From assembly GCA_023212725.1 (NCBI GenBank), contig JALBYF010000061.1, positions 1-64,000 of the forward strand: a DNA stretch of 64,000 nucleotides, given 5' to 3'. The stretch's first letter is position 1. Each line of letters begins with the position of its first letter. The position numbers and the translations under genes were made by a program. Shown here in pieces: positions 8,409-31,155 of the stretch. Below the pieces are notes generated by a model, which saw only the letters and a list, made by a program, of their open reading frames with translations, was not told the origin of the DNA and ran no database searches. The stretch is from Tranzscheliella williamsii (lineage: Eukaryota; Basidiomycota; Ustilaginomycetes; Ustilaginales; Ustilaginaceae).

Positions 8409-11400
8409 ATGGAGGAGCATCAGGATCCCAATGGGGGCTCGGACCCGTCTTGTATACAGGAGACTCGAATCCTCGTCTTCGGATCTCAGGGCTCCGATTT
8501 TCTCCATCACTTCGAGACGCTTTTCGTCCTCGCACATTTTCTGCCCGAGCTTCAGGCGTTTATCTCTGTCGCTTTAAAGGCCCTCCGCTCAGATCTGCAA
8601 AGCGTGGCCAACGCTGGTAGGGTGTCGTGCCCAGCTTCAAAACATATTGACGACCAGATCGAGCTGCTCCCGCATCTTCCGCCATACCATGTTTTTTCGG
8701 ACCTCAGGTCGCTGGTAACGCATCAGGCCCAGGCTGAATCGAAAGATCCAGTGATCAACGGTGTTCTCCTCTGCCTCTTGCACACAGCTTCAATCATTGC
8801 ATGTCGTTCCGTAGCTCGATCATGCGGCGAAGGCTGCAAGTTTGCGGCGGTCTCTAAGGATCAAGTTCAAACTGTACAGGAGAGCTGGCGGGTGATAAGA
8901 CATGAAACGTCTCATCTGCTGGGATTTTGCACAGGAATGCTCTCAGCGTGGGCCACTCAGGGTCTCTGCGAGGCCGAGTCTGGATCATGCTCAAGTATTT
9001 GGTCATTAATGCAAGCAGCGGTCGTATCTCTCCGGATCTGCTTTTGGATTGGCCTGCGCTCGAAACGGGCCCGACATAGACTCTCCGAGAATCTGCTCAC
9101 GCCCAGCAAAGGCGAGGAACATTGGAGCATGCTGGTTGTCGGAAGATCGTCGGATTACCTGGAACGTCTTGAAGCCGTTCTGCAAACATTCAACAGAACA
9201 GTGAGAGAGGTGCGTGGCTGGATGCTTCCACGTCCTCGGCAGGCCGTTCGTTAACAAATACATCAACTTGAACGTGCTGACTCGACCTTTTCCTACCTGT
9301 GCAGAAATCCTATACATCAGTTGCTGGCCTGGCTATTACTGCTTATTCCATGAGTCAGGTATCCATTGGCGGGCATCCGAGCCTGTTGCGCACCTTTGCT
9401 GGTCTGATTGCTCGACCAAATGGCCTGCTACCAGATCTGAGGCTGTCCGAGCTCGAAATCTATTCTCCTTATCATACTACAGAGCTCGAGTCTGAGGTCG
9501 AACAGGTGCTGGCAGACTTACGCCACCTCGGTATCGTCAAGGAAGCACTCGTGGAGCCTCGTGGCAGAACACTATGGGACTCGGCCAGCGCAAGCATACT
9601 TTCTGAGGAAACAGATGACGCAGTAATCCGAAGGCTTGTAGAGAGTAATCTCTGTAGCCCGGTGCGATGGGATACAATGGTGGAAAATATGATGCTTTCA
9701 GAGCGATCCGGAAGTGCAAGCACAGTAGATATTGTCAGCTTGGGCCCTGGCATGGGTTTAGCCAGTGATATCAAGAGGCGCTTCCAAGCAAGTTCTGGCT
9801 GCACCACTCAACAGAGTTCCATTAGGATCTATGATATTGCATCTATTTTGCGAGATTTTGCGAAAAGCGCTCTGTCGTCAGATGTCGCTAACCCGGCTTA
9901 TGCGTTATCAGCAGCAGATGTCGACGGAGAAGAGATCGCAATCATTTCAATGGCTTGCCGTTTTCCAGGTGATGTCCGTAGTCCGGAAGGCTTTTGGGAA
10001 TGCCTCGAGACTGGACGCCAGACCGTTTCGGAAGTGAGTCGATTCAGAAGGATCAAATAAGAGTGCCTTTGCCGTTACTGACAGACCGTCTTACGACTTT
10101 TTAGATTCCCAAGCACCTTTTTGATATCGAAAACTATTACGGCACCGGGAAAAATCAGACTCTTGCACGCCATATGCATGCACTCCCGGAAAGTGTCACT
10201 CAAACTATGGATGCACGCCTTTTCAGCATGTCTCCAAAAGAGATCGAGCAGCTAGATCCGCAGCATCGCTTAACCATGCTATGCGCGTACGAGGCGCTAG
10301 AAAGAGCCGGTTACTCGCATGAATCAAATTCCCCTTCGTCCTTTGATCGAAAAAGGATTGCTATCTGTATGGGTGCCTCCTGGGATGACTACCGAGAAAA
10401 TGCCAGCAGTAACATTGGTAGCTACTTCATCACCGGTAATATCCGTGCCTTTATCCCAGGCCACGTGTCCTTTTCCCTCAAATGGGAGGGGGCCAGCGTG
10501 TCGGTGGATTCTCTCGAATGCACAGCAATCTCGTCCATAGAGTGGGCTCGTCGGGCGCTCCTCAGCGAACAGTGCGACGTGGCGCTGGCGGGAGCAGTTA
10601 ACGTCTTGACACAGCCACAAATGTTCATTGCTATGGACAAACAAGGCATCCTGTCTCGCAGCGGCACGAATGCAACATTCTCGAGCAAGCTTGATGGAAA
10701 GACTAGAGGTGACGGGTGCGGAGTATTGCTGCTTAAAAGGCGCTCAACCGCCATTCTTGATGGAGATACCATACTGGCGACCATTCCCGCTGTCAAGTCG
10801 GCGTATCACGCCCCGAACTTCGACGAGGAGGCCTCCATTCTAGGCCAGAAACAGCTTCTGAACGATCTTCTGCAGGGACCTATTGTCGCACACAACGACA
10901 TTGTCCACATAGAAGCCAGTGGGAATCACTCCCAAGTGGCTGAAGCGAACGAATTCGAGGCCTTCCAAAAGGTGTTTGCTTCCGCTGATTCGAGATGTCC
11001 AAAGGTATTAGGACATATTTCCGTCTCGAGCACACGCCCGAACATTGGAGCGGGGGAAGCTGTATCTGCCATGGCATCTGTTATCAAGGCAGTTCAGATT
11101 CTACAGAAGAACGTGGTGCCGAGACACCTAGGCGTCTCACAGATTTCCGAACTCCAGCCACGCATTAGGGACATCTGCCGGACTAGCTGTCTATCTGTTC
11201 CTGTAGATGCCAAGATGCTTCCGCAGCCTTCGAATTCGTCAGCACGTCGATGCATCTTGGTCAACAGCCTCGCAAGTACTGGGTGCCACGGCGCGGTGCT
11301 GGTCAGAGAGGAGCACGCTCCTAGTGTGCCAGACGGTCAGATATCAACTCACGACAAGAGAGGAGCATGGGTCTTCACCGTGTCAGCTAAGACGAAAGAG

Positions 11401-31000: not shown

Positions 31001-31155
31001 GATTCGAGGAAAGCACTGAGGTTCGCATCATATCTGGACCTGCGAAGTAGAAGTTGAAACGTTGGACAAGTCAACAAACCTGATTGGGAGGCATAGAGTA
31101 GCACCACCCTGTGGGCTTGATTTTGGCCATGGTCGTCCGAAGAAGGCTTCGCCAT
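25078..31155 (-). CDS. Non-reducing polyketide synthase B: SAT(dead)-KS-AT-PT-TE, no ACP
   Basis: Two exons on the minus strand, 31155-29890 and 29775-25078, with a 114-nt phase-0 intron (GTAAGA...GCAG); 1987 aa. SAT-like 1-~375: GxCxG is absent, the site reading SGSFPSL near 124-130, and the partner His is also replaced (LPFSPES). KS ~388-815: DTACSSA with Cys562, HGTGT His697, NIGH His738, all intact. AT ~925-1235: GHSLGEY Ser1027 and AFHS His1135. PT ~1345-1660: His1382 in QGHVILG and Asp1573 in MLLDSLGG. Residues ~1665-1755 form a polar linker with no ACP motif (no GxDSL anywhere). TE ~1770-1987: GWSIG Ser1842, Asp1869, His1965. It has all elongation and cyclisation activities but no carrier protein and no working starter loader, so it must use an ACP in trans. 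Confidence 0.93.

What the first reader, a model, noticed from the sequence alone, without database searches (positions are those of the whole stretch)
8409..31155. A single polyketide synthase split over two complementary, individually incomplete NR-PKSs
PKS-A has working motifs only for SAT, ACP (twice) and TE. PKS-B has working motifs only for KS, AT, PT and TE, and has no ACP. The missing set of each is the intact set of the other. This predicts an obligate pair that elongates on ACPs supplied by the partner. Classical fungal NR-PKSs are one iterative chain; as I recall (unverified) U. maydis Pks3/Pks4 were reported to act as a heterodimer making orsellinic acid, and I also recall U. maydis pks1/pks2 lying a few gene numbers apart, which could be the orthologous locus of this pair. 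The residue-level division of labour and this locus context are what merit attention.
Basis: partly seen in the sequence, partly recalled or inferred. Interest (0 to 1): 0.93.

Follow-up and report, generated by a model that had tools for sequence, protein, structure and literature searches.

The report
Two-part fungal polyketide synthase, each half dead
In what looks like a smut fungus, two neighbouring giant enzymes have each lost parts that the other kept, and relatives show the same division of labour, so they probably work only as a pair to make a polyketide.

Summary
PKS-A (8409-15156, +, 2 introns, 2193 aa) keeps SAT, two ACPs and TE. Its KS has lost Cys (to Glu) and both His, its AT is a remnant and its PT lacks both catalytic residues. 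PKS-B (31155-25078, -, 1 intron, 1987 aa) keeps KS, AT, PT and TE, has a dead SAT-fold N-terminus and no ACP. TE is intact in both. No other NR-PKS was found in this genome.

A-type and B-type KS domains each form one clade, with largely mirrored branching. A's dead KS is 74% identical among 8 species, close to B's live KS (81%) and above A's own live domains, so it is kept for something, most simply as the inactive half of a KS-KS heterodimer.

In print: U. maydis pks1/pks2 (UMAG_06414/06418), probably this locus, were suggested in 2026 to form one complete system; Pks3/Pks4 are reviewed as a heterodimer. My six searches of the held library showed no residue-level complementarity, conserved dead KS or wider distribution. 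Heterodimerisation and product are untested.

The parts
8409..15156 (+). PKS-A gene, exons 8409-9209, 9305-10033, 10105-15156; 2193 aa; SAT-KS(dead)-AT remnant-PT remnant-ACP-ACP-TE
8472..9200 (+). SAT domain of PKS-A (first-exon match), catalytic Cys174 at 8928-8930 (GFCTG)
10108..11136 (+). KS domain of PKS-A (main exon): Cys to Glu648 (10516-10518), His to Ser782 (10918-10920), His to Ala826 (11050-11052); inactive by motif but strongly conserved
11137..12324 (+). KS-AT linker and AT remnant of PKS-A; no AT Pfam match, no GHSxG (boundaries approximate)
12487..13410 (+). PT remnant of PKS-A; no catalytic His or Asp; boundaries from the predicted model, approximate
13615..13815 (+). first ACP of PKS-A (Ser1710)
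14014..14205 (+). second ACP of PKS-A (Ser1842)
14392..15117 (+). TE of PKS-A, Ser2008 with Asp and His
25078..31155 (-). PKS-B gene, exons 31155-29890 and 29775-25078; 1987 aa; SAT(dead)-KS-AT-PT-TE, no ACP
29990..31155 (-). N-terminal SAT-fold region of PKS-B without GxCxG or aligned catalytic His; AlphaFold model's best match is the CazM SAT (4rpm), then FabD structures, at modest TM-scores
28744..29772 (-). active-motif KS of PKS-B (Cys562, His697, His738), main exon
27361..28254 (-). AT of PKS-B (Ser1027, His1135)
26056..27000 (-). PT of PKS-B (His and Asp1573 present)
25723..26055 (-). PT-TE linker of PKS-B where an ACP would lie; one open frame, no carrier motif
25090..25722 (-). TE of PKS-B (Ser1842, Asp, His)
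15579..24775 (.). about three unrelated genes between the PKSs: Zn2Cys6-like regulator (15579-19628, -), Ndc1/Nup nucleoporin (21379-23379, -), Sod_Fe_C protein (23843-24775, +)

Best explanation
PKS-A and PKS-B are two subunits of one obligate non-reducing polyketide synthase. A supplies the starter-loading SAT, both carrier proteins and a releasing TE. B supplies the only working ketosynthase, malonyltransferase and product-template domain, plus a second TE. Most likely the live KS of B pairs with the dead KS of A in a KS-KS heterodimer, so that the ACPs of A swing over to KS, AT and PT of B, much as a bacterial type II KS works with its inactive chain-length-factor partner. Shown here: the residues, predicted gene models, no other NR-PKS found in the genome, and the conservation of the division. 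Inferred: joint function (strong) and physical KS-KS heterodimer (moderate). Unknown: the product; by probable orthology to U. maydis pks1/pks2 it may be a spore-melanin precursor.
For: Complementary catalytic residues. Of 9 KS matches in the genome 4 are these two genes and the two other large ones (C57, C128) are fatty acid synthases (short weak matches on C4, C76 and C49 not followed up). A-type rows, window included: AT GHSxG motif absent and second KS His lost in 33 of 33; SAT GxC[ST]G kept in 30 of 33, the other three (P0050, P0058, P0061) lacking or not aligning there. B-type rows, window included: KS C-H-H and AT Ser/His in 31 of 31; SAT Cys or Ser in 0 of 19 assessed. A and B KS each one clade, 100% bootstrap. 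Dead KS 74% identical among 8 Ustilaginales, AT and PT remnants 35% and 27%; 78 residues invariant in A-type KS and unlike B and canonical. PMC13208730: deletion of pks1 alone blocks melanin; identity ranges suggest pks1 is the A-type.
Against: No experiment. No complex could be modelled, and the A model is weak (mean pLDDT 64, pTM 0.40). Separate A-A and B-B homodimers acting in trans would fit the residues equally well. The division is not uniform: 6 of 31 B-type rows have an ACP and might elongate alone, 10 of 33 A-type rows keep KS Cys and first His, and 15 of 33 keep the PT His. Geranomyces takes different places in the A and B halves of the tree. In Tilletiaria and Violaceomyces the listed A and B contigs differ. 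The 0.98 correlation of A and B distances is also expected from shared species history.
Confidence: 0.77

Rival explanations
1. Obligate pair, but as two separate homodimers: B-B elongates on carrier domains of A-A reached in trans, without a mixed KS dimer.
For: All residue data fit this as well. Canonical NR-PKSs are known as homodimers (recalled).
Against: It gives no special reason for the dead KS of A to stay 74% identical across 8 species, above A's live SAT, ACP and TE, unless an A-A KS dimer is itself needed as scaffold.
Confidence: 0.2
2. PKS-A is a decaying pseudogene and PKS-B borrows a carrier protein from elsewhere, such as an FAS or NRPS.
For: A has lost KS, AT and PT motifs. The genome search lists 24 PP-binding matches, 2 of them PKS-A's own.
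Against: No internal stop in the 2193-residue model. Carrier Ser kept in 32 of 33 and TE Ser in 30 of 33 A-type rows, the exceptions being shortened proteins. KS under strong constraint. U. maydis pks1 deletion blocks melanin, if pks1 is the A-type.
Confidence: 0.04
3. The KS of A is not structural but a decarboxylating loading domain, like bacterial KSQ, feeding acetyl groups to the ACPs.
For: The Cys is replaced by an acidic residue in 23 of 33 A-type rows (Glu 19, Asp 4), compared with Gln in KSQ (recalled; KSQ-named structures appear).
Against: Both KS histidines are lost in those 23 rows; the other 10 rows keep Cys and the first His but lose the second. A still has an intact SAT for starter loading.
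Confidence: 0.06
4. Gene-model or assembly error hides missing residues or an ACP.
For: Models are predicted without transcripts; splice sites are ambiguous.
Against: The affected KS, AT and PT regions of A and the PT-TE stretch of B lie inside single long open exons, and relatives from other genomes show the same losses.
Confidence: 0.02

Closest known systems
Ustilago maydis Pks1/Pks2 (UMAG_06414/UMAG_06418) and homologues in Ustilaginaceae (PMC13208730, passages seen)
   Same: Two adjacent NR-PKS genes, widely conserved in the family, gene numbers four apart (about three genes between them in the window); the authors suggest the two may together form a complete synthase. Identity ranges fit pks1 = A-type, pks2 = B-type.
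   Different: The passages I saw give no residue-level analysis, no dead KS, no missing ACP, and no relatives outside the 16 Ustilaginaceae species studied; its domain figure was not visible to me. I had no named U. maydis sequences, so orthology is inferred.
U. maydis Pks3/Pks4 (Reyes-Fernandez 2021, not held; review PMC10098057, passages seen)
   Same: Reviewed as two PKSs that act as heterodimers, giving orsellinic acid and triacetic acid lactone.
   Different: Different locus (telomeric chromosome 12 cluster) with a third PKS, a P450, Vbs1 and regulators; residue state unknown to me.
Bacterial type II KS/CLF and the KS-CLF didomain of PUFA synthases (PMC6638757, PMC13311796, passages seen)
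   Same: A working KS with a KS-like partner as obligate heterodimer, and ACP in another part (inactivity of CLF recalled).
   Different: Those are small separate proteins or a didomain in one chain; here both are full fungal type I megasynthases.
Canonical fungal NR-PKS (PksA 8cg4, CTB1 6fij)
   Same: Same domain order and clear sequence match.
   Different: One chain carrying all the domains (homodimer: recalled).

Membership tests
Canonical iterative fungal NR-PKS | SAT-KS-AT-PT-ACP(-TE) domain order in one chain | tested here: not met
   PKS-A lacks AT, PKS-B lacks ACP
Canonical iterative fungal NR-PKS | Active KS Cys-His-His and AT Ser in the same chain as the ACP | tested here: not met
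   KS/AT motifs only in PKS-B, ACP only in PKS-A; 105 of 108 comparison hits meet it
Canonical iterative fungal NR-PKS | Sequence homology to solved NR-PKSs | tested here: met
   PksA and CTB1 among the best matches
Ustilaginaceae pks1/pks2 locus | A-type and B-type genes close together, with homologues of both in Ustilaginaceae | tested here: met
   Window coordinates; hits in U. trichophora, U. loliicola, S. reilianum, Melanopsichium, P. hubeiensis with shared contig lengths
Ustilaginaceae pks1/pks2 locus | Direct orthology to UMAG_06414 and UMAG_06418 | tested here: inconclusive
   No named U. maydis sequence in the listed hits; identity ranges agree
KS/CLF (KS-alpha/KS-beta) heterodimer | Inactive KS homologue conserved beside an active KS | tested here: met
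KS/CLF (KS-alpha/KS-beta) heterodimer | Physical KS-KS heterodimer | not testable with these tools
   No complex modelling or binding data
KS/CLF (KS-alpha/KS-beta) heterodimer | Common descent with bacterial CLF | not tested
   No CLF rows in the tree; PksA is the best solved-structure match of both proteins

The most novel reading that the evidence does not exclude
A deeply conserved, previously unnamed class of fungal type I polyketide synthases works only as an A/B heterodimer, in which a full-length megasynthase has turned its ketosynthase into an inactive chain-length-factor-like partner. This would be an independent type I counterpart of the bacterial KS/CLF pair. Relatives with milder losses suggest the steps: first A without AT and without the second KS His and B without SAT, then loss of KS Cys, of B's ACP, and late of A's PT.
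Probability: 0.5. Interest if true: 0.85.

Novelty: new variant of a known kind. Interest (0 to 1): 0.7.

Why it matters
Fungal NR-PKSs are usually treated as single self-sufficient chains. A conserved obligate pair would mean that genome mining, which scores one gene at a time, misreads both genes, and that expressing either gene alone should fail. It would explain why one of two adjacent PKS genes cannot replace the other in smut spore melanin. It would also offer a natural series of intermediates for how a homodimeric megasynthase becomes heterodimeric.

Tried and rejected
Hidden ACP or alternative exon in PKS-B: rejected, the PT-TE stretch is one open frame without a carrier motif. Another PKS in the genome to complement either protein: the two other large KS loci are FASs; three short weak KS matches were not followed up. 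KSQ-like loading role for the dead KS: disfavoured because both His are lost too. A profile search from nine distant A-type proteins, meant to find more A-types, listed 120 of 374 hits, many of them bacterial modular PKSs; among the listed ones only five already known proteins (P0023-P0026, P0031) had a SAT and no AT Pfam domain, so the distribution given is a lower bound. Structure model of the A KS-to-PT region was too weak for details; Foldseek still aligned it to KS-AT-DH synthases, PksA and CTB1, with low TM-scores. TE counts from the motif script are unreliable because the pattern also matches GHSxG, and its ACP counts include chance matches; I used the alignment instead. One row put in the A-type list (P0029) and one in its B-type list (P0148) are canonical synthases; they were excluded from the A/B counts and treated as canonical in the trees. 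The SAT site of B-type proteins aligns differently; neither puts Cys or Ser there. Seventeen close rows were dropped before the careful tree; the quick tree with 72 rows gave the same three groups; P0058 and P0061 were left out of both because their KS cut was short.

Full report
Gene structure. The window lies in an 18.18-Mb genome of 135 contigs; the closest proteins are from Ustilaginales. PKS-A runs 8409-15156 on the plus strand with introns 9210-9304 and 10034-10104. PKS-B runs 31155-25078 on the minus strand with one intron, 29889-29776. Both give uninterrupted proteins, 2193 and 1987 aa. Among many possible splice pairs I chose those with consensus-like donors (GTGCGT, GTGAGT, GTAAGA); there are no transcripts. 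Under these models a phase-0 intron falls at the same place in both KS domains (just before IPK... in A, IPE... in B), consistent with common ancestry.

Residues. In a 74-row alignment, with a separate alignment to PksA, PKS-A has the SAT Cys, two carrier serines and a complete TE triad. Its KS reads VDSLECTA where active enzymes read DTACSS, SGNHS for HGTGT, and NIGA for NIGH. It has no AT motif or Pfam AT match and no PT His or Asp. PKS-B has KS Cys-His-His, AT Ser-His, PT His-Asp and TE Ser-Asp-His, but no carrier domain and no SAT nucleophile. Its N-terminus is still predicted to fold like a SAT: a 422-residue model (mean pLDDT 79) has the CazM SAT 4rpm (E 4.9e-5, TM 0.39-0.41) and FabD structures as its best matches. 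PMC10401856 (passages seen) reports that SAT is dispensable in the mushroom NR-PKSs tested there, so B's dead SAT alone need not disable it; the missing ACP would.

No other partner found in the genome. Nine KS matches exist. Four are exons of PKS-A and PKS-B. The two other large ones, on contigs C57 and C128, are fatty acid synthases. Three short weak ones on C4, C76 and C49 were not followed up. Besides the window, AT matches lie on C57, C128 and weakly on C49, and SAT-family matches on C57 and C128. Of 24 PP-binding matches two are PKS-A's own; the others were not followed up.

The same division in relatives. Searches with each main exon gave an A-type group of 32 and a B-type group of 30 (only the best 120 hits of each are listed and grouping is mine, so these are lower bounds). 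With the window's own (counts): among 33 A-type rows GHSxG is absent in 33, the second KS His is lost in 33, KS Cys is Glu in 19, Asp in 4 and kept in 10, and the first KS His is kept in the same 10. SAT GxC[ST]G is kept in 30; of the other three two have no residue there and one (P0058) aligns doubtfully. The carrier Ser is kept in 32 and the TE Ser in 30, the exceptions being shortened proteins; the TE Asp is His in Testicularia. PT loss is not general: PT His is kept in 15 and PT Asp in 14 of 33. In 31 B-type rows KS and AT residues are intact in 31, PT in the 28 rows that reach it, TE Ser in 23. SAT Cys or Ser is found in 0 of 19 rows assessed. ACP is absent in 25 and present in 6 (Botryobasidium, Tilletia maclaganii, Parajaminaea and three unnamed); of the 25, 20 continue into a TE and so truly skip the ACP, while 5 also lack a TE and may end before it. 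Named sources of one or both types include Ustilago, Sporisorium, Melanopsichium, Testicularia, Violaceomyces, Tilletiaria, Tilletia, Thecaphora, Pseudozyma, Botryobasidium and the chytrid Geranomyces. As a comparison, 105 of 108 other NR-PKS-like hits carry KS Cys, both His, AT and ACP motifs.

History. KS trees (72 rows, SH-aLRT, 55 rows with bootstraps) put A-type, B-type and canonical rows each on one side of one well-supported branch. Within A and B the species follow a similar order: a group with Botryobasidium, T. maclaganii and Parajaminaea, and a group with T. horrida, P. flocculosa, Tilletiaria, Violaceomyces and Ustilaginales. Geranomyces is discordant: nearer the second group in A (93/82) and in the first group in B (100/99). 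Characterised basidiomycete synthases were not in the sample of 10 canonical rows, so the root and the closest canonical kin are unknown. Two of these are unnamed contigs of only 36.6 and 58.2 kb; others are large scaffolds, up to 4.6 Mb, where linkage says little. Tilletiaria and Violaceomyces list the two on different contigs.

The dead KS is kept. Among 8 Ustilaginales (one pair combines U. hordei A with U. bromivora B), mean pairwise identity in PKS-A is 0.74 for KS, 0.68 ACP, 0.62 TE, 0.48 SAT, 0.35 AT remnant and 0.27 PT remnant; in PKS-B 0.81 KS, 0.63 AT, 0.68 PT, 0.65 TE and 0.38 dead SAT. KS is the best conserved domain of B as well, so the fair comparison is A's KS with B's. In 14 A-type and 14 B-type rows, 187 of 375 KS columns are invariant in A (192 in B), and 78 residues are invariant in A and differ from both the B-type and the canonical consensus. 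So the other dead parts are drifting, while the dead KS is not. The simplest reason is that it is a structural partner of B's KS; a scaffold for an A-A dimer would also fit.

Literature. The held library was searched six times. PMC13208730 (passages seen) reports pks1 and pks2 homologues widely in 16 Ustilaginaceae, states that deletion of pks1 alone blocks melanin, and suggests the two may form one functionally complete system. Its identity floors (pks1 above 50%, pks2 above 58.4%, P. flocculosa excepted) are compatible with mine for 8 A-type (50.1%) and 8 B-type rows (64.5%), so pks1 is probably the A-type. It lists U. hordei and M. antarcticus as having only pks2, whereas A-type proteins named from both appear. 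PMC10098057 (passages) reviews Pks3/Pks4 as heterodimers; the primary paper was not held, nor was the pks1 paper. PMC4917244 (passages) ties pks1 and a laccase to teliospore melanin; PMC10532341 (passages) says the same of pks1, pks2 and lac1. KS/CLF pairs as obligate heterodimers come from PMC13311796 and PMC6638757 (passages).

Verdict. Joint function is the best reading by a wide margin; a mixed KS dimer is the likelier but unproven form. The pairing has been suggested in print for the probable orthologues, so this is a new variant of a known kind. The parts I did not find in those searches are the residue-level division, the conserved dead KS and the wide distribution.

Noticed in passing
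window 15579-19628 (-): Between the PKSs lies a large protein with CxxCx6C ... CxxCx6C halves separated by a long insert, like a Zn2Cys6 regulator with an expanded loop; Pfam gives no match and the only PDB match up to E 1 is an ethanol regulon activator at E 0.022. It could be a cluster regulator.
   Followed up: partly
window 32983-33837 (+): FSH1-type serine hydrolase next to PKS-B; the match covers only the C-terminal half of the family, so an upstream exon is likely. A possible release or tailoring enzyme.
   Followed up: no
window 39125-40909 (+): One open frame carries a MYG1 exonuclease domain followed by a CobW nucleotide-binding domain, possibly a gene fusion.
   Followed up: no
P0017 and P0027 (Violaceomyces); P0022 and P0028 (Tilletia): Members of both A-type groups occur in the same genus or species, so two old paralogous A/B pairs may exist.
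   Followed up: partly
P0005, P0012, P0013: A-type proteins named from U. hordei and M. antarcticus exist, where PMC13208730 found only pks2.
   Followed up: no
P0004 (Testicularia): The TE catalytic Asp aligns with His, a possible TE loss in one A-type protein.
   Followed up: no
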